The notes below the pieces were generated by a model. The model was not told where the DNA came from and ran no database searches. It saw only the letters and a program-made list of their open reading frames with translations. A program made the position numbers and the translations under genes. 54,825 nucleotides of DNA from Anaerolineae bacterium (GTDB taxonomy: Bacteria; Chloroflexota; Anaerolineae; Aggregatilineales; Phototrophicaceae): positions 1 to 54,825 of the forward strand of contig JABWBO010000018.1 in NCBI GenBank assembly GCA_013360465.1, written 5' to 3'. This document shows positions 27,441-42,578 of this stretch, piece by piece; within the stretch, counting starts at the first letter, position 1; every line of letters starts with the position of its first letter.

Positions 27441-29813
27441 TCAGGGCATGGTCTCGCCGGCTTGCCCGAAGTTCGCCGCCAGCAGCGAGAAGTCGCTGAT
27501 ATTCACGATCTGGTTGTTGTCGAAGTCGGCGCGCGCATCATAGGTTGCGCCACCCTCCGATGTGCCAAAGCTGGATGCCAAAATCGAGAAGTCGCTGATG
27601 TTGACGACGTTGTCGTTGTTGGCGTCGCCTTCGCGCAGCAGACCGAAGTCGATGACGTTGTTTCCGTTATCCAGATCGCTGACGATCAATGCCGCCAGCG
27701 TATGATCGTGCTTGACCCACAGCAGGTAGCTTTCCGGCGGAATGCCGTTCGGCGTCGTTCCAGAGAAGACCATCCTCCCGCTGTCGTCGGTGGTGACGTA
27801 GGCGTCGTAGATCGCCGCGCCGCCGCCTCCTGGGACCACCCGCACCCGCACCGGGACGACCCAGCGCAAATCCGGCGGCGTGCCGTGCCCCTCCAGGGCG
27901 ACATCGCCGATGACCGAAGCGTGCGGATCGCTCAGCCCGCCGTCCTGCCACAGGTTGTTCAGGCTGCCCGCCGCAAACAAGCGCGTTTCGGTGCAGCCGA
28001 TGCCGTTGCCGGTGTCCGTCGGGTTGATATCGCTGTCGACCGAGTCGTCGAAGAGGATGATGGGATCGTTCTGGTCCTTGAGCGTGATGGTCTCGCCCGT
28101 GTAGGTTGTCAGGCAGATGTGGTAGCTGCCCTCTTCCGGGGCGACCAGCGTGTAATTGCCGAAGCGGTCGGTGGTCGTGCTGACAACCGTATAGAAACGC
28201 CCAAACAGGAATTGGCGCAAGCGTACCCGTCTGCCCGCCAACCCCGATTCGCGCCCATTCTGAATGCCGTCGCCATCGGCGTCGTACCACACCTTGCTGC
28301 CGACATTGACCGGGTCGGCGGTGATGATACCGGCGTCGATATTGGTGATCGAGATGACGTTGCTGGCGATATTGAAGATGTCGGTGTAGCCGGCATCCGC
28401 GCCGGTCGGGTTGAAGTCGCTGTCTTTGGTGTTGTCCCCGCTCGCGTCCTTCGGCGAGAAATCGTCGACGCTGGACGGCTTGATCACCCGGATGCGATAG
28501 TTACCGGGAATCGGCGCGACCACGAAGTAACTGCCCGTCGCGCTGGTTTCTGTTTCGTACAGCATCACGCTCTTGTCGGAATTCCAGAGCTGCACGGTCA
28601 CGCCGGCGATACCCGGTTCGCCGGCATCCTGGAAACCATCCTCGTCCAGGTCGTCCCAGACGAAATTGCCGATGTTGATCGGCGTCGGGGTGCGGGTGGG
28701 GGTAGGGGTGCGGAACTTGATGATGCCGGCATCGATGCTGCTGATGGAGATGACGTTGCTGCCGACGGCGATGATGTCGGTGAAGCCGCCGTCTTCCCCG
28801 GAGGGGTTAATGTCGCTGTCGTCGGTGTCGTCGCCTCCTGCCAGGTCTTTCGGCGAGAACTGGTCGTTGATGCTGGGCAGGACGACGCGCACCCGGTAGT
28901 TCCCCGGTCCCGACGACTGGAGGGTGTAGTTACCGCTGGCGTTCGTCACCGTCGTATCCAGTAGAGCCGATTTTGCCGAATTCCAAAGCTGCACGGTGAC
29001 GCCCGACAGACCGGGTTCGCCGGCGTCCTGGCGACCATCCTGATCCAGATCGTCCCAGACGAAGTTGCCGAAATTGACCGGCGTCGGCGTGCGCGTCGGG
29101 GTAGGGGTGCGGTACTTGATGATGCCGGCGTCGATGCTGCTGATCGAGATGACGTTGCTGGCGATGGAGAGGATGTCGGTGAAGCCGGTATGAGCGCCGG
29201 TGGGGTTGATGTCGCTGTCGTCGGTATCGTCGCCCCCCGCCAGGTCTTTCGGCGAGAACTGGTCGTTGATGCTGGGCAGGACGACGCGCACGCGGTAGCT
29301 CCCCGATGTCGGGGCGACGACGGTGTAGATGCCGTTGGCGTCGGTTGAGTCAACGTCGATCAGCGTTGTCTTCGTCGAATTCCAGAGCTGCACGGTGACA
29401 CCCGACAAGCCGGGTTCGCCGGCGTCCTGGCGGCCATCCTGATCCAGATCGTCCCAGACGAAGTTGCCGATATTGATCGGCGTCGGGGTGCGGGTCGGCG
29501 TGGCGGTGGCGTTGATACCCACCGCGTCGGTGGCGCGCGGCGCATCGGTGCTGATCTCCTCCATGAAGACGATGCCGTTGTCGTCGGCGGGGAGCGGAGT
29601 CTCAGTGCCTCTGCCGCTCGCCGGAAGGGTGGCGTCAAGCGTTGCGGTGATGAAGTAGGTGTCCCCGTCCGCCTGCACAACATCGCCGGCGTCGGAGGCA
29701 CTGGCTGCGGTCAGGCTTTGCTGCGCGGCGATCAGATAAAACAGCGCTGCGCAGGTGAAGCATAGCAGCATAAGCATAGAGAGATTAACTCTGCGCATAA
29801 GATACAGATCCAC
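27441..29813 (-). CDS. Secreted SdrD-like B-repeat protein with C-terminal beta-module and dockerin
   Basis: A 790-residue surface or secreted protein. The N-terminal hydrophobic segment (LSMLMLLCFTCAALFYLI, after MRR) is an export signal. Three near-identical SdrD-like B-type repeats, period about 133 residues, cover 113-235, 246-368 and 379-501, each opening with NFVWDDLDQDGRQDAGEPG and separated by TPTRTPTP linkers; a fourth, divergent one follows (about 505-625). Residues 638-790 are a beta-module plus type I dockerin with two Ca-binding loops (DANNDNVVNISD and DFDNNQIVNISD). GTG 29813 has no good ribosome site; ATG 29798 is an alternative start. Secreted adhesion or scaffold role is inferred. 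Confidence 0.85.
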   Translation of the reverse strand: MDLYLMRRVNLSMLMLLCFTCAALFYLIAAQQSLTAASASDAGDVVQADGDTYFITATLDATLPASGRGTETPLPADDNGIVFMEEISTDAPRATDAVGINATATPTRTPTPINIGNFVWDDLDQDGRQDAGEPGLSGVTVQLWNSTKTTLIDVDSTDANGIYTVVAPTSGSYRVRVVLPSINDQFSPKDLAGGDDTDDSDINPTGAHTGFTDILSIASNVISISSIDAGIIKYRTPTPTRTPTPVNFGNFVWDDLDQDGRQDAGEPGLSGVTVQLWNSAKSALLDTTVTNASGNYTLQSSGPGNYRVRVVLPSINDQFSPKDLAGGDDTDDSDINPSGEDGGFTDIIAVGSNVISISSIDAGIIKFRTPTPTRTPTPINIGNFVWDDLDEDGFQDAGEPGIAGVTVQLWNSDKSVMLYETETSATGSYFVVAPIPGNYRIRVIKPSSVDDFSPKDASGDNTKDSDFNPTGADAGYTDIFNIASNVISITNIDAGIITADPVNVGSKVWYDADGDGIQNGRESGLAGRRVRLRQFLFGRFYTVVSTTTDRFGNYTLVAPEEGSYHICLTTYTGETITLKDQNDPIILFDDSVDSDINPTDTGNGIGCTETRLFAAGSLNNLWQDGGLSDPHASVIGDVALEGHGTPPDLRWVVPVRVRVVPGGGGAAIYDAYVTTDDSGRMVFSGTTPNGIPPESYLLWVKHDHTLAALIVSDLDNGNNVIDFGLLREGDANNDNVVNISDFSILASSFGTSEGGATYDARADFDNNQIVNISDFSLLAANFGQAGETMP
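28300..29477 (-). repeat. Tandem coding repeats (SdrD-like, about 400 bp period)
   Basis: Three strongly similar copies of about 400 bp within the 790-residue gene, with TPTRTPTP-coding linkers. High DNA identity between copies makes recombination and assembly collapse possible. Confidence 0.75.
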
Positions 29814-29924
29814 TCATTTAGTGCGACCACAACACACTTTTTTATGATATGCGAAATGAAATTACATGCCACTAACCATAGGTACGGGCAGCGCAGGTGT
29901 CAAGAACCCGTGAGGAAGGAGACA

Positions 29925-29957
29925 AAGAGGCTGGGAAGTTACACTTCCCAGCCTCTT
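29925..29957 (-). terminator. Terminator-like hairpin after the 1024-residue gene
   Basis: A 15-bp perfect stem (29925-29939 with 29943-29957) and 3-nt loop, about 45 nt past the stop at 30003, followed on the minus strand by TTTGTCTCCTT after the stem. The T-run is imperfect but the stem is strong. Confidence 0.7.
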
Positions 29958-30002
29958 CAGGTGTATATATTACGGGTCGTCCGGCGACCTTGCGGGCGTT
30001 GG

Positions 30003-33000
30003 TTACGGAGCGCCGGACTGCGTGAAGCTGCTCGCCAGCAGCGAGAAGTCGCTGATGTTGACGATGCCGTCGTCCGTGAAGTCGGCGCGAGCGTCGTAGC
30101 CCGGCAGCCCTTCAGCGGTGGCGAACGCCGCTGCTAGGATGGAAAAGTCGGTGATGTTCACGCCGTTGTTATTGTTGGCGTCGCCTTCGATCAGCATGCC
30201 GAGATCGACCGGGTTCGCGCCGTAATGGAGCAGGACGACGACGGCGTTCGCCAGGCTGTGTTCGCCCTTGACGCGCAGCCGGTAGAGACCGGGCGTGAAG
30301 CCGGGCAGGTCGGACGTGGTGATGACGAAGTGTCCGTTCTGGTCAGTGTTCAGGGGTCCGCTGAAGATCACCGCACCTGCGCCGCCGTCCGCCGTGATGG
30401 CGACCTGAAGCGTCATCACCCAGCGCGGATCGGGCGCTGTGCCGTGTCCTTGCAGCATGACCGACCCGGCGATGCTGCGCGCCAGCGTGAAGTCGATGTC
30501 TGACACGGTTTGTCCGAGGAGAACGTTCACCGGCGTGGCGTCGGCGGGCGCGCTGACCCCGTTGAAGTACTGTGTGGGGAACGCCGCCTGATCGCTGCAC
30601 ATGCCGACCTCGGCTTTGATAACGTGGCTGCCCGCCGGCACATAGATGCGGTAGCTGCCATCCGGTTGACTGCATTCGGGGTAGGTCCCGTCGGCAAGCG
30701 AGACCGTCACCCCGTCGAGCGGCTGACCGTTTTCATCGGTGATGTGCCCGCTGATAACGCCTGCCAGCGGCAGCGAGAAGTCGATGTCCGGCGTGGTCGT
30801 TCCGGTGGTCACGGCGACCGGGGCTGCGCCGTCGAAGGTTGGCGACTGGTTGTAGAACAGGCGCAGGCGGTCCCCAGGGAACAGCCAGACCCGATAGGTA
30901 TCGGTCGCCAGCCCAGTGATCTGATAGCCGCCGCCTGGACCGGTCTGCGCGCAGAACCAGTGGGGGACGAGGTTGAGCGCCGCCGCGCCATAATCGAATG
31001 CGCATACCCAGATGTCAGGGAGCGGCGCGCCGTCTTCAGCCGCCGTCACCGTCCCGCTGATCGCACCGCCAGCGTCGAGTGTGAAGTTGATCCCGGTCAC
31101 CGGGCTGGTTGCCGGGTTCACGGGCAGAGGGGTGGCGCTGCCGGGGTCGGCGGCTTCCTGCCACCACTCTAGCAGGAAGCTCTGCGCTGGACCGGGGCAG
31201 AAGGTTGCGCCGGCGAAGACCTTGTAGGTGCCGCCCAGGGGGACCAGCAGCGAATAGGTTCCGTCATTGTTGGTGCAGAAGCGGTCGACAACCGGATCGC
31301 CGCCGCCGCTGCTGCCGCTGTCCGCGCCCACGCCGACGTTCACCAGCGGGGTGACGCCGTCCGCAGCGTAGACCGTGCCGCTGATCAGCCCGGCGGGAGT
31401 GAGCGTGAAATTGATCCCCGTCTGGTTCGGCGCGCCGCTGTTCACCGAGAGCAGTACCGCAGCATCCCAACTGGGCGTCTCCTGCCAGAACTCCTGCATG
31501 TAGGTTTTGCTGCTGCACCAGTTGCCGCCGCCAGCGCTCACCCGGAACTGCACGTTGTGGGGGATGCCGAGCAGTTGGTATGTGCCGTCGGGATTGGTGC
31601 AGACACCGATGGTGTCGTTGGCGAAATGGGCGGTCACCGACATACCCCCGATGGGCTGCCCGGTGGCGGCATCGGTGACGATGCCGGACACCGTTCCGCC
31701 GGGGGTGAGCGTGAAGTCGATGCCCGTCGGGTTGCGGTTTGCCAGCGTCAGGGTGATCGGCGTGGCGCTCGTCACATCTGCTGCTTCCTGCCACCATTCC
31801 ACCACATGGGTCTGGTTCTGGCTGGCGCACCAGTTGAAGCTGTCACGCGCTGCCGCCACGCGGATGGGCTGGTTCAGCGGCAGATGCATCAGGGTGTAGT
31901 GTCCGTTTTCATCGGTGCACACGCCCACCCAGACTTCGTTCGTGTTGACCGGCATGTTCGCCAGCGGGGTGATGCCGTCTTCGGCGTAAACCGTGCCGCT
32001 GATCGTGCCGCCGGGGTCGAGCGTGAAATCGACATCCGGGACGACCGCGCCTGCGGCGACGATCACCGGCGTCGCCAGGCTGCCGTCAAAACCGGCTTCG
32101 TCGTAGAATTCCAGCGCGTAGCCCGCACCTTCGGCGCGCACCCGATACGTCCCTGGGGTGATGCCGATCATGGTGAAGCTGCCATCCGGGTTCGACCCCG
32201 CGCCGACCCAGTCGCCCCCGCTGATCGGTTCGGCGCTGATCCAGACGCTCGTCGTGATGGGCGTCACGCCATCGCTCTCGTAGACGTGCCCGGTGATCGT
32301 GCCGCCGGGGTCCAGTGTGAAATTGATGTTGGTCGGCGGCGGGACGGGGGGGGCCAGCACGATGGGGTCGGCCGCATTCTGGTTTTCTTCCTCAAACCAG
32401 TATTCTCTCAGGTAACTCGCGCTGCTGCACCAGTTGCCGCTGCCGCCGGCGCTGACCGTCAGCGTGACGTTGAAAGGCAGACCGGTGAATTCGTAGTGCC
32501 CGGTGGAGTTGGTGCAGACCTCGGTGAAGAAGCTGCCGCCGTCGAGGTTCACGACCATGCTAGGAATGGGATCGCCGGTGACGGAGTCGACCACCGTCCC
32601 GCTCAGCGATCCGCCGACTTCAAGGGTGAAATTCCTGCCGGTGACCGGCGACGTCGTGCTGTCCACCAGGATCGGCGTGGCGGCGTCGGTGGTAGCGGCT
32701 TCCTGCCACCATTCGCGTACGTAAATCTGTGGACCGCCGGCGCAGAAGTTGCTGCCGCCGGCGGTGATCTTGTAGGCAGTATCGAGCGGGACGGTGAGCG
32801 TGTAGTTGCCCGCAGCGTCCGTACAGGCGCCCATGCCGCCCTGTTCGACATCGACGCCGATGTTTTCCAGCGGGTCGCCGGTCGTCTGATCGGTGACCGT
32901 GCCGCTGATCGTTCCAGACGGACTCTGCAATCGGGCTGCGGAAAGTGCGCTCACTTCATCGGTTGCTGCGCCGATCCCCTCAGGTGAGCGGGCTGCGAAG

Positions 33001-33077
33001 GAAGGGGGGATGAACAAGAGCAGGAGTGCCAGGAAAAAGAGCGAACTGATTGTGAGAGAAAACCGTGCATGGCTCAT
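30003..33077 (-). CDS. Secreted multi-repeat carboxypeptidase-regulatory-like protein with beta-module and dockerin
   Basis: A 1024-residue secreted protein. The signal peptide is FSLTISSLFFLALLLLFIPPSFAARS. About eight CarboxypepD_reg-like beta-sandwich repeats of roughly 100 residues follow, each opening with a GTISGTV-type strand and holding an aromatic motif such as REWWQEAA or VEWWQEAA with a later ATPI. The C-terminal 152 residues are the same beta-module plus type I dockerin (GDANNNNGVNITDF and ADFTDDGIVNISDF) as in two other genes here. ATG 33077 is chosen because GGGAGG lies about 7 nt upstream; the in-frame start at 33227 has none and lies upstream of the promoter. Divergent from the S9 peptidase gene. 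Confidence 0.85.
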   Translation of the reverse strand: MSHARFSLTISSLFFLALLLLFIPPSFAARSPEGIGAATDEVSALSAARLQSPSGTISGTVTDQTTGDPLENIGVDVEQGGMGACTDAAGNYTLTVPLDTAYKITAGGSNFCAGGPQIYVREWWQEAATTDAATPILVDSTTSPVTGRNFTLEVGGSLSGTVVDSVTGDPIPSMVVNLDGGSFFTEVCTNSTGHYEFTGLPFNVTLTVSAGGSGNWCSSASYLREYWFEEENQNAADPIVLAPPVPPPTNINFTLDPGGTITGHVYESDGVTPITTSVWISAEPISGGDWVGAGSNPDGSFTMIGITPGTYRVRAEGAGYALEFYDEAGFDGSLATPVIVAAGAVVPDVDFTLDPGGTISGTVYAEDGITPLANMPVNTNEVWVGVCTDENGHYTLMHLPLNQPIRVAAARDSFNWCASQNQTHVVEWWQEAADVTSATPITLTLANRNPTGIDFTLTPGGTVSGIVTDAATGQPIGGMSVTAHFANDTIGVCTNPDGTYQLLGIPHNVQFRVSAGGGNWCSSKTYMQEFWQETPSWDAAVLLSVNSGAPNQTGINFTLTPAGLISGTVYAADGVTPLVNVGVGADSGSSGGGDPVVDRFCTNNDGTYSLLVPLGGTYKVFAGATFCPGPAQSFLLEWWQEAADPGSATPLPVNPATSPVTGINFTLDAGGAISGTVTAAEDGAPLPDIWVCAFDYGAAALNLVPHWFCAQTGPGGGYQITGLATDTYRVWLFPGDRLRLFYNQSPTFDGAAPVAVTTGTTTPDIDFSLPLAGVISGHITDENGQPLDGVTVSLADGTYPECSQPDGSYRIYVPAGSHVIKAEVGMCSDQAAFPTQYFNGVSAPADATPVNVLLGQTVSDIDFTLARSIAGSVMLQGHGTAPDPRWVMTLQVAITADGGAGAVIFSGPLNTDQNGHFVITTSDLPGFTPGLYRLRVKGEHSLANAVVVLLHYGANPVDLGMLIEGDANNNNGVNITDFSILAAAFATAEGLPGYDARADFTDDGIVNISDFSLLASSFTQSGAP

Positions 33078-33136
33078 TGATACCTCCCTTGACGGTATGC
33101 TGCGAAGAACTAAGGTCAATTTTTCAAAGCCAGCAG

Positions 33137-33165
33137 ACTTTATTTCATTGTGAATTACAGAACAA
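33137..33165 (-). promoter_or_regulatory. Candidate promoter of the 1024-residue gene
   Basis: Minus strand TTGTTC (33160-33165), 17-nt spacer, TAAAGT (33137-33142), about 60 nt before the ATG. Confidence 0.45.
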
Positions 33166-33216
33166 GTGAGATTCGTCACCTCTCTGGCATGGGCATCTTT
33201 TCGGGAAATCCGCTGG

Positions 33217-33246
33217 TTGACTCGCACGCGGCGTTGCGGCTAAACT
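33217..33246 (+). promoter_or_regulatory. Promoter of the S9 peptidase gene
   Basis: TTGACT (33217-33222), 18-nt spacer, TAAACT (33241-33246). The leader ends with AGAGAGGTGAG before the ATG at 33292. Confidence 0.6.
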
Positions 33247-33291
33247 ACTCTCAATCGTTTGAATAATTTTCAAAGAGAGGTGAGCGCGTCA

Positions 33292-35118
33292 ATGCCTGAC
33301 AAGATTCCCTTCCAGCAGTACGCCGCGACCCGCATCTACACGCCGGCGGTCGCCTATTCTCCCGACGGAAGGCTGATCGCCCATGTGACCAACACCACCG
33401 GGCAGTTCAACCTGTGGACGATCCCCTCTGGCGGCGGCATCCCGCGCCAGCTTACCGCCTACAACGACGATACGGTGCGCGGCATCGCCTGGAGACCGGA
33501 CGGCAAAGCGATCCTCTTCAATGCTGATTCCAACGGCACAGAACAGCACGCCATCTACATCATCCCGGCTTCGGGGGGCGTTCCGAAGCCGGTCACGACG
33601 GCGAAGGCACAGCACTATCTGGCGACCACGCCCTATTCGCCGGACATGAAGACCATCGCCTACTGCGGTAACGACCTGACCCCGGAGAACATGGAGATCA
33701 TCCTGCGCGATGTCGAGACGGGCGAGAGCGGACGTCCCTTCCCGGCGGGTGGGGCGATGTACTTCCCGGCGGACTGGTCTCCCAACGGGCGCTATCTGAC
33801 GGCGGGCAGGCTGGTCTCGAACACCAAGCAGGACATCTTCATGCTCGATACCGTTGGCGGCGAAGTGCTGCGAGTCACCGAGACGGACGAAGAAGTTGTG
33901 TTCGCGCCTGGACCCTGGCTGCCCGACAGCAGCGGGTTCTACATCGTCACCAACCAGGGGCGCGAATTCACCGGTCTGGCGCTATATCGACTCGCCGAAC
34001 GCGCCTGGACGTGGGTCGAGACCCCCGAACACGACATCGAGCTGGTCGCCGTCTCGCGCGATGGGCGGGTGCTGGTCTGGGCGGTCAACGAGGACGGCGC
34101 ATCCAGGCTATATGGACGGTCGCTGACCACCGGCAACCCGCTGGCGCTGCCCGATATGCCGCTGGGCGTCATTGACGCCATCGACATCAACCCGGACGGC
34201 TCCAAGGTGGCGCTGATCTTCGCCGGCGCCAAGGAAGCGCCGAACCTCTACGAATTCGATCTACGCAGCGGCGAGATGCTGGCGCTGGGGCAGAGCATGA
34301 TCGGCGGTATCGACCCGGCGGCGATGGTCGATCCGGAGCTGATCTACTATCCGACCCACGACGGACGGCAGATTCCCGCCTGGCTCTACCGCCCGGCTGC
34401 CAATCTGCATCCCAGCGGCAGGACGCCGGTGCTGCTGTCGATTCACGGGGGACCGGAAGCACAGGAACGCCCACGCTACAACTACCTGGGCTTCTACCAG
34501 TACCTCGTCAGCCGGGGATACGCCGTCCTTGCGCCGAATATTCGCGGTTCGACGGGTTACGGGCAGACCTACCAGAAGCTCATCCACCGCGACTGGGGCG
34601 GCGCGGAACTGGGCGACATCCGCCAGGCGGCGGAGTGGCTGCGCGCGCAGCCCTGGGTCGATGCCGAGCGGCTGATCGTCTTCGGCGGCAGCTTCGGCGG
34701 CTTTGCCACGCTCAGCGCCGTGACGCGCCTGCCGGAATACTGGGCGCTCGGCGTGGACATCGTCGGACCCTCGAACCTGATCACTTTCGTCCGGTCCGTG
34801 CCGCCGCACTGGCGCAGCTTCACCCGTGACTGGGTGGGCGACCCGGAGGAAGATCGTGAGATGCTCATCGAACGATCGCCGATCACCCATGTCGATGCCA
34901 TCCGCGCCCCGCTGCTGGTCATCCAGGGCGCCAACGATCCGCGCGTGGTGCAGGCGGAAAGCGACCAGATGGTCGAGCGGATTCGCCAGAACGGCGGCGA
35001 AGTGACCTACTATGTCGATCCTGACGAAGGACATGGCACGACGCGGCGCGCCAACGCCCTGAGGTGGTATCAGATGATCGTCGATACCATCGAAGCGAAG
35101 GTGCCGAACGACGACTGA
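33292..35118 (+). CDS. S9 family prolyl oligopeptidase/acylaminoacyl peptidase
   Basis: A 608-residue cytosolic serine peptidase. The N-terminal part (about 1-345) is a beta-propeller with WD40/TolB-like repeats (YSPDGRLIAHV, WRPDGKAILFN, YSPDMKTIAYC, WSPNGRYLTAG). The C-terminal part is an alpha/beta hydrolase with Ser467 (FGGSFGGFATL), Asp549 (QGANDPRVV) and His581 (DEGHGTTRR). These enzymes cleave short peptides that fit through the propeller. ATG 33292 is preferred to a TTG at 33259 because AGAGAGGTG lies before it. No signal peptide. Confidence 0.92.
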   Translation: MPDKIPFQQYAATRIYTPAVAYSPDGRLIAHVTNTTGQFNLWTIPSGGGIPRQLTAYNDDTVRGIAWRPDGKAILFNADSNGTEQHAIYIIPASGGVPKPVTTAKAQHYLATTPYSPDMKTIAYCGNDLTPENMEIILRDVETGESGRPFPAGGAMYFPADWSPNGRYLTAGRLVSNTKQDIFMLDTVGGEVLRVTETDEEVVFAPGPWLPDSSGFYIVTNQGREFTGLALYRLAERAWTWVETPEHDIELVAVSRDGRVLVWAVNEDGASRLYGRSLTTGNPLALPDMPLGVIDAIDINPDGSKVALIFAGAKEAPNLYEFDLRSGEMLALGQSMIGGIDPAAMVDPELIYYPTHDGRQIPAWLYRPAANLHPSGRTPVLLSIHGGPEAQERPRYNYLGFYQYLVSRGYAVLAPNIRGSTGYGQTYQKLIHRDWGGAELGDIRQAAEWLRAQPWVDAERLIVFGGSFGGFATLSAVTRLPEYWALGVDIVGPSNLITFVRSVPPHWRSFTRDWVGDPEEDREMLIERSPITHVDAIRAPLLVIQGANDPRVVQAESDQMVERIRQNGGEVTYYVDPDEGHGTTRRANALRWYQMIVDTIEAKVPNDD

Positions 35119-35148
35119 CGCCCTGCAACATTGTTCGCGCCGCCGTCG

Positions 35149-35154
35149 TATAAT
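35149..35154 (+). promoter_or_regulatory. -10 box before the 119-residue protein
   Basis: TATAAT 32 nt before the GTG at 35187. No well-spaced -35. Confidence 0.4.
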
Positions 35155-35186
35155 GGTGTAACAGACAGTTAACGAGGATCACGGAA

Positions 35187-35546: not shown

Positions 35547-35576
35547 GCCGGAACTTTCAGGCGCGACAGCATACGA

Positions 35577-35616
35577 GGGGCATGGCGTGCGGTGAGGAAC
35601 CGGCACGCCGTGCCCC
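35577..35616 (+). terminator. Terminator after the 119-residue protein gene
   Basis: A 14-bp stem (35577-35590 with 35603-35616, one G-U pair) with a 12-nt loop, followed by TTTCTCTGTTTT on the plus strand, 30 nt past the stop. Confidence 0.75.
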
Positions 35617-35639
35617 TTTCTCTGTTTTCCGCTGTCGGA

Positions 35640-36092
35640 TCACGTCTCGACGGCGTAGCCGGCTGCCTGCCAGTCGATGATGCCGCCCAGGTCGTAAATC
35701 TGTGTGTAACCCGCCTGGCTCAGGATCTGCGCCGCCTGTGCGCTGCGGTTGCCGCTGCGGCAGTAGACGACCACCGGCACGTCTTTCGGCACGCCGGCGA
35801 GGTTCGCGGCGAGAGTTTCGACGGCGATATTGGCGGCATTGGCGATGTGCCCCCCGGCGAACTCTTCGGGCGTGCGCACGTCGAGCAGATAATGGGCGAC
35901 GCTGGCTTCGGCGAACTGCGAGACGTAATTCTGCGGTGTGAGATCGGCGACCGCCGCGCTGTTCGATGGGGCGGGCGCGCCGGTGAGCAGGATCGCCGCG
36001 ATCACCGCGACGGCGGCGAGCGCGATCACCACGCCGACGAGAGGAAGGCTGCTGCGCTGCGGCTGCGCCTTTGCCGGTGTACGTTTGGTCAT
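35640..36092 (-). CDS. Membrane-anchored rhodanese-domain protein
   Basis: A 150-residue protein with one N-terminal membrane helix or signal anchor (LPLVGVVIALAAVAVIAAILL, residues about 16-36) and a single rhodanese domain outside. The active-site loop is CRSGNRS, with the catalytic Cys in VVVYCRSGNRSAQAA; LLDVRTPEEFAGGHIANAANI is the standard substrate-side motif. It could transfer sulfur or handle thiosulfate, cyanide or protein thiols in the periplasm-facing space. It converges with the preceding small gene. AAGGAT is the ribosome site. Function beyond sulfurtransferase is not evident. Confidence 0.9.
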   Translation of the reverse strand: MTKRTPAKAQPQRSSLPLVGVVIALAAVAVIAAILLTGAPAPSNSAAVADLTPQNYVSQFAEASVAHYLLDVRTPEEFAGGHIANAANIAVETLAANLAGVPKDVPVVVYCRSGNRSAQAAQILSQAGYTQIYDLGGIIDWQAAGYAVET

Positions 36093-36214
36093 CAGAAATC
36101 CTTTTGGACAGCCTTTGTGAAATCAAGCACAAGAATAGAACGCCAGGCGGCGGCGCGATCTTACCTGCGCTGTACCCCCGCCTTTCGGGGCGCACCCGGC
36201 GAGGCGGGACGCGC

Positions 36215-36220
36215 TACAAT
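36215..36220 (+). promoter_or_regulatory. -10 box of the DUF4432 gene
   Basis: TACAAT, 41 nt before the ATG at 36262; no clear -35. A TTG at 36229 lies 8 nt after it but the AAGGA-preceded ATG is better. Confidence 0.4.
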
Positions 36221-36261
36221 ACGCCCTATTGAATTATTCTTTCACGTCAAGGACTGCCAGC

Positions 36262-37284
36262 ATGTTCACACGTTCCGCCCTTGAAGCGCACAGCCTCGAC
36301 CTCCGCCAGTTCATCGGCTTCCGCGAATCCACGCTTGCCAACGGGCAGCGGGTCATCGACGCCACCAACAGCAGCGGACTGGACTTCACGCTGCTGCCCG
36401 ACCGGGGCATGGACATCCACGCCGCCCACTGGAACGGCTTGCCCCTGACCTGGATCAGCCAGGGATCGCCCTTCGCCTCCGATTTCGCCGGCTCCTGGCT
36501 GCGCCTGTTCAACGGCGGGCTGCTGACCACCTGCGGGCTGCTCCACGCCGGGGCGGCGGACGTGGACCCGGTGACGGGCGAGAAACGCGATCTGCACGGG
36601 CGCTACACCCGGCTGAGCGCCTATGAGATCGCCGCCTGCACGTTCTGGGATGGCGACGCGCTGGTCTCCGAGCTGACCTGCGCCGTCAGCGAAAACACCC
36701 TCTTTGGCGAGCAGCTTCGGCTGGAGCGCACCTACCGGCTGGTCGTCGGTGAGCCGTCGGTGACCCTCCTCGACCGGGTGGAGAATCGCGGTGATCAGCC
36801 GTCGCCCTTCATGATCCTCTATCATTTCAACGTCGGTTATCCGCTGGTGCGCGCCGGCGCGCGGCTGATCAGCCCGGCGGAGAAGATCGAGCCGCGCGAT
36901 GACGCCGCCCGCCCCGGTTTCGACCGCTGGGCGGAGTACGACGCGCCGATCCCGCGCTACGCCGAGCAGGTCTTCTTCCACGCGATCCCTCCGAAGGACG
37001 GCATGGCATCGGTGGCGCTGGTCAACGCCGATTACGGTCTGCGCGTCGATTGGGACCCGACCTACAGCCCCTATTTCACCCAGTGGAAGAATGTGCGCCA
37101 GGGCATCTACGTCAACGGTCTGGAACCTGCCAACTGCCTGCCGGAAGGGCAGGCGGCGGCGAAGGCGAACAACCGCCTGGTGACTTTGCAGCCCGGCGAG
37201 GCGCACAGCTTCCGCAACGTGCTGACCATCCTGCCGGATCGTCAGTCCATCGCCGCGGTCGAGGCGGAACTAAACGCCTGGTGA
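36262..37284 (+). CDS. DUF4432 family aldose 1-epimerase-like protein
   Basis: A 340-residue protein of the galactose-mutarotase-like beta-supersandwich superfamily. Visible features are the N-terminal LDFTLLPDRGMDIHAAHW, FNGGLLTTCGLLHAGAADV, YHFNVGYPLVRAGARLISP with the His, and the C-terminal FTQWKNVRQGIYVNGLEPANCL. Such proteins may interconvert sugar anomers, but DUF4432 members are largely uncharacterised. ATG 36262 has AAGGA 9 nt upstream. Short gap (50 nt) to the VIT-vWA gene, same strand, so possibly one transcript. Confidence 0.85.
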   Translation: MFTRSALEAHSLDLRQFIGFRESTLANGQRVIDATNSSGLDFTLLPDRGMDIHAAHWNGLPLTWISQGSPFASDFAGSWLRLFNGGLLTTCGLLHAGAADVDPVTGEKRDLHGRYTRLSAYEIAACTFWDGDALVSELTCAVSENTLFGEQLRLERTYRLVVGEPSVTLLDRVENRGDQPSPFMILYHFNVGYPLVRAGARLISPAEKIEPRDDAARPGFDRWAEYDAPIPRYAEQVFFHAIPPKDGMASVALVNADYGLRVDWDPTYSPYFTQWKNVRQGIYVNGLEPANCLPEGQAAAKANNRLVTLQPGEAHSFRNVLTILPDRQSIAAVEAELNAW

Positions 37285-37334
37285 GATCGTCTAACTCCCG
37301 TTGAAATACGCAAGCAGGGGAAGGATCAAGAACG

Positions 37335-39713
37335 ATGACACTCAGTAGTTCGGATCAGCTTCAGTTCGGGGCGCTGCTGCTCGTTCAATCGGGCGAAACA
37401 GCGTCGCCGCTGCCGCTGGAACACACCGCCGTCAGCGCCGCCATCACCGGTGGGCTGGCGCAGGTGACGGTCGTCCAGCGTTTCGGCAATCCGTTTGACC
37501 ACCCGGTCGAACTGGAATACCTCTTTCCCCTGCCGCATCAAGCCGCCGTCGTCGATTTCACCCTGCGCGTCGGGGTCCGCCGCATCAGCGCCGCCATCAA
37601 AGAGACCGAGGCGGCGCGCCAGACATACGCAGCCGCCTCTGCCGCGGGGCAGCGCGCCGGGCTGCTGGAACAGCGCCGCCCGAACCTGTTCGCCCTGCGC
37701 CTCGCCAACATCCAGCCCGGCGAAAACATCTTCAGCGAGATCGTCTACGACGACCGGCTGTCGTTCGAAGATGTCGGCTACACCTTCACCTTTCCGATGG
37801 GCATCACGCCGCGCTATCACAGCCCGGCGCACCCCGCGCCCGGCGGGCGCGTCGATGCGCCGTACGTCCTGGAGGACGCGCAGATCGCGCCGGTCGAGAT
37901 TCGCCTGACGCTCGACGCCGGCGTGCCGATCAGCGATCCGACCAGCCCGTCGCACCCGATCCGGGTCGAGCGCGTCGAAGGTGGGCTGGCGCAGGTCGCT
38001 CTCGACGGGCGGCACATCCCCAACAAGGACTTCGTCCTGCGCTACGAGGCATCTGGCAAGACGGTGCAGTCCAGTCTGTGGACGCACCCCGACGGCGAGA
38101 GCGAGGCGGCGCTGCTGACGCTGATCCCGCCCCGGCTGAGCGTCGATCTGGTCGTTCCGCCGCGCGAGTTCATCTTCGTGATCGACCGTTCCGGTTCGAT
38201 GTCCACCGAGCCGATGGACCAGGCGCGGCGGGCGCTCAAAGCCTGTCTGCGGGCGCTCAACCCGGACGACGCCTTCACCATTCAGGCGTTCGATCATCAG
38301 ATTGAGTGGTTCTATGGCAGGGGCGCTCTGGCGGTGACACAGGAGCACGTCGATCAGGCGGATCGCTGGCTGGACGGCATCAAGTCGCGCGGTGGCACGG
38401 AAATCCTGCCCGCTATCGATGCGGCGCTGGCGCTGCCCGCCGACGCCTCCCGCGCGCGTTATCTCGTCTTCCTGACCGACGGATCGGTGAGCGCCGATGA
38501 CGCCGCCCTTCAAAAAGTCGCCCGCAGCGCCGGCAGGGCGCGCATCTTCACCTTCGGCATTGGTCCGTCGGTCAACCGCTATCTGCTCAGCAAGATGGCG
38601 GAGTTCGGGCGCGGCGCGGCAGAGTTCATCAGCAGCCACGAACCGATTGAGCCGGTCGTCGCCCGCTTCCAGGACCGGGTCAGCTATCCTGCCCTGCGCG
38701 ACCTGACGCTGACCGGTCAGGGCGTCGATTTGTGGGATGTCTACCCGCCAGCACTGCCCGATCTATACGTCGGTCAGCCGCTCGAAATTGCCGCGCGCCT
38801 GCTGCGCCAGGCGGATCACGCCGAAGCGCCTGCGCTGACGATCCGGGGTGAACTGGGTGGTGTGCCGCAGCAGTTCAGCCTGCCCCTGCCGCCGGGCGCT
38901 GCTTCCGAACTGGTCGGGCGGCTGTGGGCGCGGGCGCGCGTTGAATCGCTGCTGGATCGGCTGATCGCGCACCCGGAGGACAGGGAGACGATCCGCCAGC
39001 AGGTGATCGCGCTGGGGCTGGGCGCGCGGCTGGTCACCCCGTATACGTCGTTCGTCGCCGTTGACAGCGAGGTCACGACCGGCGGGACAGCGGAGACCGT
39101 ACTGGTCGCGCAGCCGCTGCCGGAAGGTCTGGAGTGGGGTAGTTTCGTCGGAGGGGGTCCAGCCTTCATGACGATGTCCGCGCCGGCTTCTCCGCCCTCC
39201 AGCATGCCTCAGCTTCACTTCATGCGAAGCCGCAGCCAGCCCTTAGGGTCGGCGGGAAGCGGCGCGCGGGACAAGCACACCCTTGTCGATGCCATCACAC
39301 CGGAGTACGAGCGGCCGATTGCGATGGACGAACCCGCAGGTCAAGAGACCGAGGAAGATCTGCTGATCGCCGCGCTGGATCAGAAAGCCGCGCAGCCACA
39401 TGCCGGGCGGATCGCGGACATCCTGGATGTCGCCCAGAAGCCCAGCCCGGCGGTGCTGCAAACGCTGGCGAGTACGCAGCGGGTGAATGGCAGTTGGGAC
39501 GATGACCCTGCGAAGACCGCCGTCCGGCTCGCCCTGTTCATTCAGGCAGGGTACACCACCCGCGCCGGGAGCTATCGCGCGCAGGTGCGCAAGGCGGCGC
39601 TTTGGCTGCGCGCAGCCGCGCCGGTGGCGCTGGACCGAGCGCGCGGCTTGATCGCCGAGACGCTGAAGATGCTCTCGGAGGCGACCGGCGAAGATTGGAG
39701 CCTGACGCCATAG
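37335..39713 (+). CDS. VIT and von Willebrand factor A domain protein
   Basis: A 792-residue protein of the inter-alpha-trypsin-inhibitor heavy-chain type. Residues about 15-150 form a VIT domain (VTVVQRFGNPFDHPVELEY, ANIQPGENIFSEIVYDD). Residues about 277-450 form a vWA domain with an intact MIDAS (DRSGSMS at about 284, later LTDGS). The rest is beta-rich and helical, and the last 100 residues are helical (TPERA-like, GRIADILDVAQK). No signal peptide or transmembrane helix is seen, so it may act inside, though VIT-vWA proteins are often extracytoplasmic. AAGGA lies 10 nt before the ATG. Metal-dependent protein binding is the likely activity. Confidence 0.88.
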   Translation: MTLSSSDQLQFGALLLVQSGETASPLPLEHTAVSAAITGGLAQVTVVQRFGNPFDHPVELEYLFPLPHQAAVVDFTLRVGVRRISAAIKETEAARQTYAAASAAGQRAGLLEQRRPNLFALRLANIQPGENIFSEIVYDDRLSFEDVGYTFTFPMGITPRYHSPAHPAPGGRVDAPYVLEDAQIAPVEIRLTLDAGVPISDPTSPSHPIRVERVEGGLAQVALDGRHIPNKDFVLRYEASGKTVQSSLWTHPDGESEAALLTLIPPRLSVDLVVPPREFIFVIDRSGSMSTEPMDQARRALKACLRALNPDDAFTIQAFDHQIEWFYGRGALAVTQEHVDQADRWLDGIKSRGGTEILPAIDAALALPADASRARYLVFLTDGSVSADDAALQKVARSAGRARIFTFGIGPSVNRYLLSKMAEFGRGAAEFISSHEPIEPVVARFQDRVSYPALRDLTLTGQGVDLWDVYPPALPDLYVGQPLEIAARLLRQADHAEAPALTIRGELGGVPQQFSLPLPPGAASELVGRLWARARVESLLDRLIAHPEDRETIRQQVIALGLGARLVTPYTSFVAVDSEVTTGGTAETVLVAQPLPEGLEWGSFVGGGPAFMTMSAPASPPSSMPQLHFMRSRSQPLGSAGSGARDKHTLVDAITPEYERPIAMDEPAGQETEEDLLIAALDQKAAQPHAGRIADILDVAQKPSPAVLQTLASTQRVNGSWDDDPAKTAVRLALFIQAGYTTRAGSYRAQVRKAALWLRAAAPVALDRARGLIAETLKMLSEATGEDWSLTP

Positions 39714-39749
39714 AGAGGGGCGAACTTTGCCGTCATGGGTGGAAGGGCG

Positions 39750-40736
39750 TCACGGACCCGAACCGGGCGTGACGCCCGTCGCGAGCGGCTCAATCAGCAG
39801 CGTCTCGGCGGAGAGGGGTTCGCCGCTCCCGAAGTTCTCCGCCAGGATAGAAAAATCGCCGATCTCGATGCGCCCGTCGCCATCGAAGTCCGCCGACTCA
39901 AGATATGCCGCTTCGCCGGCGGCGGCGCCGAACGCCATCGCCAGCATCGAGAAATCGGTGATGTCCACACGGCGGTCGCCGTTGGCGTCGCCGGCGACCG
40001 GCTGCGCTTGAGAGTCCGTCATCAGGAAGATGTCGATTTCGGACGTTTCACCGCCTTCTTCGACCTGAATAGTCTCGATGGTCAGCGCGCTGGAGGTCGT
40101 CACGGCGATGTCCAGCGCGTGAAATGCCGGTCGGAAACCCTTCGCCGATGCGCTGACCCGATAGTCTCCCGGCGCGAGCCGGCTGAGGCGGTAGCCGCCC
40201 GCCGCGTCGGCGATCTCCGACGCCACCCACCCGCCGCCGACCGTCCACACGTCGATCTTGGCGAAAGGGATGGGCGCGCCGTCGTCCTGAGTCTGCACCC
40301 TACCGCTGATCGTCCCCCAGCGCTCCAGCATCACGGTGATGCCGAGGCTTCCACCTTCGGGAGGGATTGTCAGGAGGTCGGCAGCGGCGAACCTGGACTG
40401 GCGATTGTAGAATGCCGGCAGGTATTCCGCCGGCGGTACTGCCCACAGCTTGTAATCTCCCGGAGGCAGCAGGTCAAAACCGAACGAGCCATCTTCGGCG
40501 CTGGACGCTTCCGCCAGGAAGACATCGCTTGCGGAATACAGGAGCAGCGCTACCTGAGGGATCGGCGTCGTGCCATTCACCCGGCTGACCGTGCCCTGTA
40601 TCGCACCGGTTGGGCTGGACGTGGGGATGCCGGTCGCTTGGTCACGCGAATCCTGGGCGCTCAGCGCGGCAGGGCTGCCGACGATCAGGATCAAAAGCAG
40701 CGCCAGTGTCCGCGCCAGGTTCCGCGAAATCCCCAT
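39750..40736 (-). CDS. Secreted carboxypeptidase-regulatory-like protein with dockerin
   Basis: A 328-residue secreted protein. The signal peptide is ARTLALLLILIVGSPAALSAQ. Two CarboxypepD_reg-type repeats follow (about residues 45-130 and 135-215; GAIQGTVSRVNGTTPIP, GTISGRVQTQDDGAPIP), then a short linker and a type I dockerin (GDANGDRRVDITDF and DFDGDGRIEIGDF) with two Ca loops. It lacks the beta-module that precedes the dockerin in the other three. A GGGCGTCACG/CGTGACGCCC inverted repeat overlaps its stop codon, shared with the convergent VIT-vWA end. The 40778-40783 TATAAT (minus strand) is its likely -10. Confidence 0.85.
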   Translation of the reverse strand: MGISRNLARTLALLLILIVGSPAALSAQDSRDQATGIPTSSPTGAIQGTVSRVNGTTPIPQVALLLYSASDVFLAEASSAEDGSFGFDLLPPGDYKLWAVPPAEYLPAFYNRQSRFAAADLLTIPPEGGSLGITVMLERWGTISGRVQTQDDGAPIPFAKIDVWTVGGGWVASEIADAAGGYRLSRLAPGDYRVSASAKGFRPAFHALDIAVTTSSALTIETIQVEEGGETSEIDIFLMTDSQAQPVAGDANGDRRVDITDFSMLAMAFGAAAGEAAYLESADFDGDGRIEIGDFSILAENFGSGEPLSAETLLIEPLATGVTPGSGP

Positions 40737-40777
40737 ATGACTCGATCCTCAGTGTAGTCCATACGCACGCCGCGAGG

Positions 40778-40783
40778 ATTATA
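40778..40783 (-). promoter_or_regulatory. -10 box of the 328-residue dockerin gene
   Basis: TATAAT on the minus strand, 42 nt before the start codon at 40736. No good -35. Confidence 0.45.
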
Positions 40784-40850
40784 GCGCACCTGCGCCCGCC
40801 GAGGAGGCGGAAATCCGACTCCCCCGGCGGGCGCAGCGGCGTCGGCACGT

Positions 40851-42578
40851 CTACGGCGCGCCGGTCTCCCCGAAGCTCGCTGCCAGCAGCGAGAAATCGC
40901 CGATGGTGATGGCGTCGTCCTCGTTGAAATCTGCTTCGGGCGCGAAGCCCTCCTGACCCTGCGCCTTGCCGAAGGCGAGCGCCAGCAGCGAGAAGTCGGA
41001 GATGTTGACCTGGTTGTCGTTGGTGGCGTCGCCTTCGCGCAGTGTGCCCAGGTCTGCCGCGTTGCTCCCGGTCACCAGCGTCACGCCGATGACGTTCGCC
41101 AGCGCATGGCTGTGCTTGATCCGCACCTGGTATGCGCCCGGCGGGATGCCTGGGATGCTGAAGACGCCGTTAAGGTCGGTGAATACGGTGTCGCTGTAGA
41201 TCGGGCTGAGCGCGCTGTCGGCGGTGATGGTCACCTGAAGGGGCATACTCCAGGCGATGTTCGGCTTGGCGACGCTGCGCTGGAAGGCGACCATCCCGTC
41301 GAGGGTCGCGGCATCGACGGGCGAGAAGAAGATCATATCGATGGCGCTGACCTGCGTGTTGGGCGGCACCGATACGGCGTCGGAGGCTTGCAGGGTGAGC
41401 TTCTGGTCGTAGTAAATTGTCCCGAACGCCGGCGAGACGGCGCTGAAATAATACGTGCCTTCGAGGACCGGTCGGGAGTAGGCTCCGTTCGCCAGCGTCG
41501 TCGTCGAGTAGGTGTGAATCGCGGCGCTCGGGCTGTCGTAGATCAGCACCGATACGCCGCCCGCCGGGGTGATACCATCCGGTTGATAGACCGAGCCGCT
41601 GACCGCGCCGACGCCCGCCAGCGCGAAGACCATGCCGCCGCGCGTCTGCCCGGCGTCGATGGTCAGCGGTTCGGCGGCGCGCTGCGCCATGTCGCTGTTG
41701 TAGTCGCGCGCTTCGTGGTTGAACTGGTAAGCGGTCAGTTGGTAGGTCCCGGCGGGGACGGGCAGGGCGAATGTCCCGTCGCTGTGCGATTCTATCCAGG
41801 CGACCGGCTCAGCGCCACCATACTCGTAGGCGTAGACCGCCGCGCGCGAGATCGGCGTGATCCCGTCGGCTTCGGTGACGATGCCGGTGAACAGCGCCGC
41901 CGGCTGCATGACGAAATCGACCCCCTGGGTGATCGTCCCGCCGCCGACGCCGACCGGCGGCGCGCTTTCGGCGTTGAACGATCCGCCGGTGTAGGCGCTG
42001 ACGCTGCCCATGCTGACCGCCTTGACCAGATACTCACCCGGCGCGAGGTAGTTGATGGCGTACCAGCCATCCGGCGTGGTGAAGGTCAAGCCCAGGCTGC
42101 GCCCGCTGGCATAGTCGTAGACATAGACCGCCGCCGAATCCAGCGGCGTTGTACCGTCGGCGGCAGTGATCATCCCGCTGATGCCGCCGGGCAGGGCGAG
42201 GGCGAAGTCGATGCGATAGGCATTGACGCCGGTGACGGGCAGAAATTCGGCGCGTTCCAGGGAGGGGCTGCCGTTGGAGTAGGATTCGACATAGCCGATA
42301 CGCTCCGCCTTCACGCGGTAGGAGCCGACCGGGATGTTGTTGAAGGTGTAAGTCCCGTCGCCGCCAGTCACCCGAAAACCGACCGGTTCGCCGGTCACAT
42401 CGATGAGCAGGACCTGGGCGTCGGCGAGCGGCGTCACGCCGTCGGCGGCATAGACCACGCCGCTGATGCTGGCGTCGCTTCCGCCCGGCGGATGACTCTC
42501 CTGCGCCAGCGCAGCCCCCGGCAGCAGACAGCCGGCGCAGAGGATCAGCCAGGATAGGATCGATCTCGCGTGAGCCAC
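40851..42578 (-). CDS. Secreted carboxypeptidase-regulatory-like repeat protein with beta-module and dockerin
   Basis: A 575-residue secreted protein. Signal peptide: ILSWLILCAGCLLPGAALAQ. About four CarboxypepD_reg-type repeats of roughly 90-100 residues follow (SISGVVYAADGVTPLADAQV, GISGMITAADGTTPLDSA, FTGIVTEADGITPISRAAV, SGSVYQPDGITPAGGVSV), with aromatic/acidic motifs between. The last 149 residues form the beta-module and type I dockerin (GDATNDNQVNISDF, ADFNEDDAITIGDF). GTG start with GAGGGG about 7 nt upstream. Same strand as the 328-residue dockerin gene, 114 nt apart; each has its own -10. Confidence 0.85.
   Translation of the reverse strand: MAHARSILSWLILCAGCLLPGAALAQESHPPGGSDASISGVVYAADGVTPLADAQVLLIDVTGEPVGFRVTGGDGTYTFNNIPVGSYRVKAERIGYVESYSNGSPSLERAEFLPVTGVNAYRIDFALALPGGISGMITAADGTTPLDSAAVYVYDYASGRSLGLTFTTPDGWYAINYLAPGEYLVKAVSMGSVSAYTGGSFNAESAPPVGVGGGTITQGVDFVMQPAALFTGIVTEADGITPISRAAVYAYEYGGAEPVAWIESHSDGTFALPVPAGTYQLTAYQFNHEARDYNSDMAQRAAEPLTIDAGQTRGGMVFALAGVGAVSGSVYQPDGITPAGGVSVLIYDSPSAAIHTYSTTTLANGAYSRPVLEGTYYFSAVSPAFGTIYYDQKLTLQASDAVSVPPNTQVSAIDMIFFSPVDAATLDGMVAFQRSVAKPNIAWSMPLQVTITADSALSPIYSDTVFTDLNGVFSIPGIPPGAYQVRIKHSHALANVIGVTLVTGSNAADLGTLREGDATNDNQVNISDFSLLALAFGKAQGQEGFAPEADFNEDDAITIGDFSLLAASFGETGAP

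What the first reader, a model, noticed from the sequence alone, without database searches (positions are those of the whole stretch)
27441..42578. Four dockerin proteins, three sharing a longer C-terminal beta-module plus dockerin
Genes of 790, 1024 and 575 residues end in a related 150-residue unit (27441-27902, 30003-30461, 40851-41300): a strand-rich module with LQGHGTAPDPRW/LEGHGTPPDLRW or a diverged form, PPGxYxLRVKHxHxLAN, (D/N)LGxLREGDAN, then two Ca loops with NISDF. The fourth protein (328 residues) has the dockerin only. No cohesin is in the window. The unit may be a surface-sorting or assembly tag that works without a classical cohesin.
Basis: partly seen in the sequence, partly recalled or inferred. 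Interest (0 to 1): 0.65.

Follow-up and report, generated by a model that had tools for sequence, protein, structure and literature searches.

The report
Docking tag on Chloroflexota exoproteins
The shared C-terminal unit is the known "X-module plus dockerin" plug, and possible socket proteins (cohesins) are encoded elsewhere in the same bacterial genome, so these secreted proteins are probably plugged onto the cell surface; the parts are familiar, but their use on proteases and adhesin-like proteins instead of cellulases, with cohesins fused to wall-binding domains in sister species, is an unusual variant.

Summary
In detail: three window genes end in the same ~150-residue unit; a fourth has the dockerin without it. 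The unit is not a new module. Its profile matches solved X-module–type II dockerin dyads (XDoc) across both modules, and an AlphaFold2 model of a window unit (pLDDT 94.8) superposes on them as one body (Z 14.2–15.4; next row 8.3). "No cohesin" is true of the window only: the genome has four cohesins over Pfam's cut-off, a weaker fifth and a fragment. 18 of its 19 dockerin sites carry the unit. In 41 genomes (own plus 40 relatives), strong XDoc and strong cohesin mark the same 6. In one sister species three XDoc genes lie between two cohesin genes, one with three LysM domains; another has cohesin–LysM and cohesin–SH3 proteins. Best reading: a non-cellulosomal cohesin–XDoc system attaching proteases, a nuclease-like protein and adhesin-like exoproteins to the cell. 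Binding is inferred. Notable: propeller–XDoc–cohesin proteins carry plug and socket in one chain. New variant of a known kind.

The parts
27441..29813 (-). Exoprotein 1 (790 aa): hydrophobic N-terminus (by eye), SdrD_B-like repeats joined by TPTRTPTP linkers, C-terminal X-module plus dockerin
27960..29480 (-). SdrD_B-like repeat region of exoprotein 1 (bounds approximate)
   Evidence: Pfam SdrD_B, 4 stretches, E 5e-82
27630..27914 (-). X-module of exoprotein 1 (seven-stranded beta-sandwich with a short turn of helix after strand 1)
   Evidence: bounds from unit match 27456-27914 less dockerin 27474-27629
27474..27629 (-). Type II-like dockerin of exoprotein 1, two Ca loops, NISDFSILA / NISDFSLLA
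30003..33227 (-). Exoprotein 2 (1024 aa from the inner ATG): CarboxypepD_reg repeats, then X-module plus dockerin
30186..30473 (-). X-module of exoprotein 2
   Evidence: unit match 30012-30473 (a row of the profile); 52% identity to the unit of exoprotein 1
30033..30185 (-). Dockerin of exoprotein 2
39750..40736 (-). Exoprotein 3 (328 aa): CarboxypepD_reg domains and a dockerin, no match to this X-module
39837..39995 (-). Dockerin of exoprotein 3, the best Dockerin_1 score of the genome
   Evidence: 37 bits, E 2.5e-8
40851..42578 (-). Exoprotein 4 (575 aa): CarboxypepD_reg repeats, then X-module plus dockerin
41034..41303 (-). X-module of exoprotein 4 (diverged front)
   Evidence: unit match 40860-41303 (a row of the profile); 43% identity to the unit of exoprotein 1
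40881..41033 (-). Dockerin of exoprotein 4

Best explanation
The unit is an X-module-type II dockerin dyad used as a C-terminal docking tag. Secreted proteins carrying it (subtilisin-like, M64-like and reprolysin-like proteases, a nuclease-like protein, beta-helix-like and repeat proteins, beta-propellers) fold the dockerin around two calcium ions and plug onto single-cohesin proteins made by the same cell. In sister species some cohesins are fused, in part through Pro/Thr-rich linkers, to LysM or SH3 domains that would hold them on the wall. In this genome one cohesin protein has the same front (hydrophobic N-terminus, cohesin, Pro/Thr linker) but is cut by the contig end, and another ends in LPETGG. 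Four propeller proteins carry the dyad; behind it one has a cohesin, one has the start of a cohesin before the contig ends, one has a cohesin in another frame, and one is cut inside the dockerin. They could act as adaptors that dock and offer a new socket. Shown by computation: identity and fold of the dyad, presence of cohesins, co-occurrence, gene clustering, LysM/SH3 fusions in sister species. Inferred: binding, calcium dependence, who binds whom, and surface location.
For: (1) The profile of 17 own-genome units matches PDB XDoc dyads over module and dockerin: 4u3s_B E 1.2e-11, 4wi0_B 1.4e-11, 2b59_B 1.4e-10. (2) The model of window:27444-27938 (pLDDT 94.8, pTM 0.87) has Foldseek ranks 1-10 all chains that contain an XDoc (best E 2.0e-9) and VIA Z 14.2-15.4 over 142-150 residues at rmsd 2.5-3.0, next row Z 8.3, so the X/dockerin orientation matches too. 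(3) Own-genome cohesins: C87, C157:1140, C201 and C137 over Pfam's cut-off, a weaker one at C157:3-806 (20.5 bits against 24.1), and a fragment on C221 (E 0.0012). (4) The cohesin profile's best PDB relatives are the type II cohesins of A. cellulolyticus ScaB (3l8q E 2e-6; 5g5d_A and 4u3s_A, partners of XDocs above, E 0.003-0.004); Foldseek of the XDoc-Coh model also lists 1qzn and 3l8q (E 6e-4 and 7e-4, low TM). (5) In 301 genomes of the phylum, unit/dockerin matches occur in 35, cohesin in 33 (29 over cut-off), both in 27 (Fisher p 1e-25, not corrected for kinship). (6) In 41 genomes (own plus 40 relatives), XDoc at E<1e-30 and cohesin at E<1e-20 occur in the same 6 and in none of the other 35 (thresholds set after seeing the tables). 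(7) Outside the own genome, 33 of 53 well-covered unit hits have a cohesin hit within 10 kb, in 20 of 25 genomes; 23 of 53 share an open frame with one. (8) G311: one-strand run Coh-XDoc-XDoc-XDoc-Coh(3 LysM); G312: Coh-2 LysM and Coh-2 SH3_3; G304: protease-XDoc gene divergent from a cohesin gene. (9) The two dockerin helices are alike (mean 8.2 of 12 identical) with an aromatic at the place of Phe27/Phe60 of B. cellulosolvens DocCel48 in 17 of 17 units (PMC8063739 passages).
Against: No binding data. In the own genome no cohesin protein has a proven anchor: C157:3-806 is cut by the contig end, C157:996-2108 ends LPETGG with no transmembrane segment after it, no SLH domain was found, and none of the 34 LysM matches lies on a contig with a cohesin match. 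Several cohesins are weak or unseen by Pfam: C157:3-806 and the G312 SH3 protein (18.2 bits) fall below the cut-off, and L101:2510-4393 and L104:3440-4612 have no Pfam match at all, resting on my own profile. That profile was built partly from XDoc-linked cohesins and own sequences, so own-genome hits and part of the match in point 6 are favoured by construction. 8 of 35 phylum genomes with unit matches have no PF00963 hit (G064, G070, G086, G177, G197, G238, G246, G273), including G177 with three strong units (74% complete); six have cohesin only. Five of 25 genomes show no cohesin within 10 kb of a well-covered unit. In the closest 41, unit-only weak matches occur in G301, G313, G317, G324 and cohesin-only weak ones in G307, G309, G314. 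Met17/Met50 of DocCel48 is mostly Ile here and Met21 is Ser; two propeller-type units have Thr at the Met50 place in the second repeat.
Confidence: 0.8

Rival explanations
1. Self-assembling network: propeller-XDoc-cohesin proteins link head to tail (dyad of one into the cohesin of the next), forming a chain or mesh on which XDoc-only exoproteins are end caps. Not exclusive of the best explanation.
For: XDoc directly followed by cohesin in one open frame on C87 and (running off the contig) C137 of the own genome, and on G306:C5; 8 of 46 public loci have, read by eye, XDoc followed by a cohesin; 23 of 53 unit hits, in 15 other genomes, share a frame with a cohesin, 15 on the N side, 5 on the C side, 3 on both. 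The XDoc-Coh model shows a disordered linker and no confident intramolecular docking (pTM 0.51).
Against: The two modules on one chain may have different specificities (as in adaptor scaffoldins), which would stop chaining. Only 8 rows cover the cohesin in that model, so a missed intramolecular contact is possible. No measurement.
Confidence: 0.2
2. One reading: the unit binds a new, non-cohesin partner.
For: Eight genomes with unit matches lack a PF00963 hit; own-genome cohesins are few and weak by the Pfam model (25.8-35.2 bits over the cut-off; one at 20.5).
Against: Close sequence and fold match to XDocs whose partners are cohesins; cohesins in the same genome, in the same gene runs and even in the same chains.
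Confidence: 0.06
3. A true cellulosome for plant polysaccharides.
For: Same parts; a sister species has one GH44-XDoc protein (L103).
Against: No glycoside hydrolase or CBM family over cut-off in Pfam scans of the 19 own dockerin proteins, two of them cut by contig ends; no own protein with two cohesin matches.
Confidence: 0.03
4. Passive structural tail: one more transthyretin-like repeat plus a calcium-binding pair that only stabilises the C-terminus.
For: The same proteins carry many CarboxypepD_reg and SdrD_B repeats, and the X-module shares that general fold.
Against: The dyad keeps its place at the C-terminus, or ahead of a cohesin, in 18 varied own proteins, keeps two alike helix faces, and co-occurs with cohesins.
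Confidence: 0.04

Closest known systems
X-module-type II dockerin dyad (C. thermocellum CipA/CipB, A. cellulolyticus ScaA; PDB 2b59, 5k39, 5g5d, 5m0y, 4u3s, 4wi0; PMC5141474, passages)
   Same: Seven-stranded X-module with short helix after strand 1, packed on a two-loop calcium dockerin; same mutual orientation; sequence similarity across both modules.
   Different: There it sits on scaffoldins and hooks a cellulosome to the cell. Here it sits directly on many different exoproteins. 18-23% identity in the structure alignments.
Non-cellulosomal cohesin/dockerin systems (Archaeoglobus fulgidus, PMC9705933 passages; ANME archaea, PMC9012536 section 32; Peer et al. 2009, cited there, not read)
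   Same: Cohesins and dockerins outside cellulose breakdown; in ANME dockerin and cohesins also on one protein; attachment to the outer layer suspected there.
   Different: No X-dockerin dyad is mentioned in the ANME section read. Here the dyad is the rule, and some cohesins are fused to LysM or SH3 in sister species.
Adaptor scaffoldins (A. cellulolyticus ScaB, PMC5141474 passages; R. flavefaciens ScaC, recalled)
   Same: Dockerin and cohesin on one chain.
   Different: The carrier here is a beta-propeller protein with a single cohesin right after the dyad.
Anchoring scaffoldins using SLH or sortase (PMC12484212, passages)
   Same: Cohesin fused to a wall-attachment device.
   Different: LysM or SH3 in sister species; the held text of that review has no occurrence of LysM.

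Membership tests
X-module-type II dockerin dyad | Two-loop calcium-binding dockerin | tested here: met
   Dockerin_1 above cut-off for all four window genes in the genome search (29.2, 29.7, 37.0, 25.2 bits); in hmmscan two of the four fall just under 22.9 bits (22.8, 21.1). Ca-ligand pattern kept in alignment A2, read by eye.
X-module-type II dockerin dyad | Seven-stranded X-module directly ahead of the dockerin | tested here: met
   Model: strands 7-15, 29-36, 44-49, 55-59, 69-76, 83-89, 92-101 with a three-residue helix between strands 1 and 2; agrees with the description in PMC5141474.
X-module-type II dockerin dyad | Mutual orientation and sequence similarity across both modules | tested here: met
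   Z 14.2-15.4 over 142-150 residues; HMM matches columns 38-148 of 149.
X-module-type II dockerin dyad | Tight binding to a type II cohesin | not testable with these tools
   Only indirect: cohesins in the genome, nearest PDB relatives are type II cohesins.
Cellulosome | Dockerin-bearing plant-polysaccharide enzymes and carbohydrate-binding modules | tested here: not met
   None over cut-off in Pfam scans of the own genome's 19 dockerin proteins, two of them cut by contig ends.
Cellulosome | Scaffoldin with several cohesins | tested here: not met
   No own protein shows two cohesin matches; contig ends cut two of the five cohesin proteins, and G323 does have proteins with two.
Non-cellulosomal cohesin-dockerin system | Cohesin and dockerin modules in one genome without dockerin-bearing cellulases | tested here: met
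Sortase-anchored surface protein (the C157 cohesin protein) | LPXTG followed by transmembrane segment and charged tail | tested here: not met
   Ends LPETGG then stop; same end in G306. A sortase gene exists.
Adaptor scaffoldin (propeller-XDoc-cohesin proteins) | Dockerin and cohesin on one chain with different partners | tested here: inconclusive
   Both modules on one chain; partners not testable here.

The most novel reading that the evidence does not exclude
A non-cellulosomal surface polymer: proteins with plug (X-dockerin) and socket (cohesin) on one chain link head to tail, are held on the peptidoglycan by LysM- or SH3-cohesin proteins, and are decorated by XDoc-tagged proteases and adhesins, making a modular, calcium-held protein coat in Chloroflexota.
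Probability: 0.2. Interest if true: 0.65.

Novelty: new variant of a known kind. Interest (0 to 1): 0.42.

Why it matters
It also suggests that X-dockerins serve as a general C-terminal tag for displaying many kinds of exoprotein in uncultured Chloroflexota, with single-cohesin proteins, some bearing LysM or SH3 domains, in place of large scaffoldins. That gives a list of plug and socket candidates to test, a way to predict which secreted proteins stay on the cell, and possible new orthogonal pairs for surface display. One paper reports no cohesin or dockerin in six other Anaerolineae genomes (PMC4877987, passage), in line with the patchy spread seen here.

Tried and rejected
Pfam and NCBIfam gave no family of its own for the module, only CarboxypepD_reg or SdrD_B for the repeats (and for some units) and Dockerin_1; that looked like a new module until the PDB profile search. 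A sortase route for one cohesin protein was considered (LPETGG end, one sortase) and left open, since no transmembrane tail follows. An S-layer route was tested: no SLH match. I looked for the missing rest of the cut C157 cohesin protein among the own genome's LysM proteins: of 34 matches I scanned 13 loci by a pattern and read C28 in its three forward frames; none shown was its continuation, and the rest were not read. Intramolecular docking of XDoc to the cohesin behind it was tested by folding; no confident arrangement came out. The phylum scan scored at most 13 candidates per genome, so unit counts per genome there are lower bounds (own genome 13 there, 19 when all were scored). An early note says 11 of 20 unit hits have a cohesin within about 100 nt; the listing gives 10, and one search replaces it. 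One search uses the 53 non-own hits that cover at least 100 of 149 columns (shorter ones dropped) and the 94 non-own cohesin hits; "same open frame" there means same contig, strand and frame length. So I do not claim that this is unprinted.
Full report
What is there. Four minus-strand genes between 27441 and 42578 encode proteins of 790, 1024, 328 and 575 residues with hydrophobic N-termini (by eye). The first is built of SdrD_B-like repeats, the others of CarboxypepD_reg repeats. Three end in a shared unit of about 150 residues; the fourth has the dockerin but does not match the preceding module, though a CarboxypepD_reg domain sits ahead of it. Three unit hits and one dockerin-only hit also lie together on one contig of a very near relative, G306:C15; coordinates there equal those of record JAEURA010000337.1, Anaerolineae MAG-265, so I take G306 to be that MAG. 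The names of near relatives also make me call the phylum Chloroflexota; the tool does not name it.

The genome. Dockerin_1 finds 19 sites at E<=0.1, 18 over the curated cut-off. Read by eye, 18 of the 19 carry the module ahead of the dockerin; 14 of these end the protein and four sit behind beta-propellers. The proteins in front vary: two subtilisin-like proteases (C76), an M64-like and a reprolysin-like metalloprotease (C6), a nuclease-like protein (C118), a Beta_helix protein (C133), a Chlam_PMP-repeat one (C95) and two that look alike to me without a Pfam match (C65, C256), one with a Laminin_G_3 lectin-like domain (C72), one with weak cadherin/Ig-like matches (C212), the propellers (C87, C117, C137, C201), and the window's repeat proteins. 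No glycoside hydrolase or carbohydrate-binding module came over cut-off in those scans.

What the unit is. Against all PDB chain sequences the unit profile finds the X-module-type II dockerin dyads of Acetivibrio cellulolyticus ScaA (4u3s_B E 1.2e-11, 4wi0_B 1.4e-11) and Clostridium thermocellum CipA/CipB (2b59_B 1.4e-10, 5g5d, 5k39/5m0y), matched from within the X-module to the end of the dockerin; the single best row is a lone dockerin, 2y3n_B. AlphaFold2 on the window's first unit with 35 rows gives pLDDT 94.8 and pTM 0.87: seven strands, a turn of helix after strand 1, then the two dockerin helices. Foldseek's ten best PDB matches all contain an XDoc; VIA-align gives Z 14.2-15.4 over 142-150 residues, against 8.3 for the next row. 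This agrees with the published description of the X-module, including its likeness to carboxypeptidase D domain II (PMC5141474, passages; 1qmu is in both lists). So the module is known.

Cohesins exist. PF00963 gives four own-genome matches over the cut-off, on C87, C157, C201 and C137. A second C157 protein (3-806), seen by eye, scores 20.5 bits, under the cut-off of 24.1. A profile of four own cohesins finds them again by construction, plus the C137 piece and a fragment at the start of C221. On C87 and C137 the cohesin follows the dyad in the same open frame, behind a beta-propeller; on C201 it lies in another frame, while an intact like gene exists in G306. The wider cohesin profile's nearest solved relatives are the type II cohesins of A. 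cellulolyticus ScaB (3l8q E 2e-6), from the scaffoldin whose cohesin is crystallised with the ScaA XDocs found above; 1g1k and 2vn5 (type I, recalled) follow at E 4-5e-3. Foldseek of the XDoc-Coh model also lists 1qzn and 3l8q, at E 6e-4 and 7e-4 with low TM.

Do they go together? In 301 genomes of the phylum, unit or dockerin matches occur in 35, cohesin in 33 (29 over cut-off), both in 27 (Fisher p 1e-25, with no correction for kinship). Exceptions: eight genomes with unit matches lack a cohesin hit, and six have cohesin only. In 41 genomes (own plus 40 relatives), XDoc at E<1e-30 and cohesin at E<1e-20 mark the same six (G000, G304, G306, G311, G312, G323) and none of the other 35; weak matches to both occur in G322 and to one alone in seven more. 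The thresholds were set after seeing the tables, and the cohesin profile was partly built from XDoc-linked cohesins, which favours this. Outside the own genome, 33 of 53 well-covered unit hits have a cohesin within 10 kb (20 of 25 genomes), and 23 of 53 share a frame with one.

Anchors. In G311 a one-strand run holds a cohesin protein (by my profile; no Pfam match), three XDoc proteins and a cohesin protein with three LysM stretches (LysM E 2.6e-46). G312 has a cohesin-Pro/Thr linker-two LysM protein and a cohesin-linker-two SH3_3 protein (Pfam cohesin 18.2 bits, under cut-off), four tandem XDoc genes (GH44, beta-helix, unknown, CAP) and a cohesin-fasciclin protein with a weaker XDoc-like end and no Dockerin_1 match. 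G304 has a subtilisin-XDoc gene divergent from a cohesin gene that Pfam does not see. The own C157 cohesin protein at 3-806 has the same front and Pro/Thr linker but leaves the contig. The other C157 cohesin protein ends LPETGG, as does its 95% identical partner in G306, with no transmembrane tail; LPETGG followed by TAA or TGA occurs once in the genome. One sortase and no SLH domain were found. None of the 34 own LysM matches shares a contig with an own cohesin match.

How it most likely works. Exoproteins are exported, the dockerin folds on calcium, and the dyad plugs onto single cohesins presented on the wall. The two dockerin helices are alike (mean 8.2 of 12 positions identical; an aromatic at the outer contact place in 17 of 17 units), as in dockerins that bind in two orientations (PMC8063739, passages); the key Met of that dockerin is mostly Ile here. 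Propeller-XDoc-cohesin proteins could serve as adaptors or chain links; folding a like chain from MAG-265 gave no confident internal docking. Binding, specificity and surface position are inferences.

Compared with what is known. The dyad itself is an X-dockerin. The setting is not a cellulosome. Non-cellulosomal cohesin-dockerin sets are known in archaea and bacteria (PMC9012536, section 32 read). What is unusual is the X-dockerin as a general tag on many exoproteins, LysM or SH3 cohesin proteins in sister species, and plug and socket on one propeller protein. A 2025 cellulosome review names SLH and sortase anchors and its held text has no LysM (PMC12484212, passages). I therefore rate it a new variant of a known kind, of moderate interest.

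Noticed in passing
L024:996-2108 (own contig C157): A cohesin protein ends exactly in LPETGG before the stop, with no transmembrane tail; a 95% identical protein in G306 ends the same way; the pattern (with TAA or TGA) occurs once in the genome.
   Followed up: partly
L026:1530-3580 (own contig C201): Propeller-XDoc gene and its cohesin lie in different frames (natural or assembly frameshift); an intact like gene exists in G306.
   Followed up: partly
L067 / L101 (JAHHHY010000010.1): Contig labelled Pleurocapsa minor (a cyanobacterium) has the same length and hit end as G311:C17, which is placed in the window's own genus; the public label looks wrong.
   Followed up: partly
L051 (JALXAQ010000137.1): A MAG labelled Thiotrichaceae has an XDoc (48% identity to the query unit) followed by a cohesin-like stretch: transfer between phyla or a binning error.
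   Followed up: no
L068, L069, L072, L075-L078 (JALHPH01, Fimbriimonadaceae bin.224): Seven loci of one MAG end in a related but diverged unit with a VGPxDFS-like signature: possibly a second large set.
   Followed up: no
39750-40736: The dockerin protein without the X-module has a CarboxypepD_reg domain ahead of its dockerin and the best dockerin score of the genome; it may be a diverged dyad.
   Followed up: partly
37335-39713: Plus-strand protein with a von Willebrand A-like stretch (FVIDRSGSMS, by eye) amid the docking genes; not domain-scanned.
   Followed up: no
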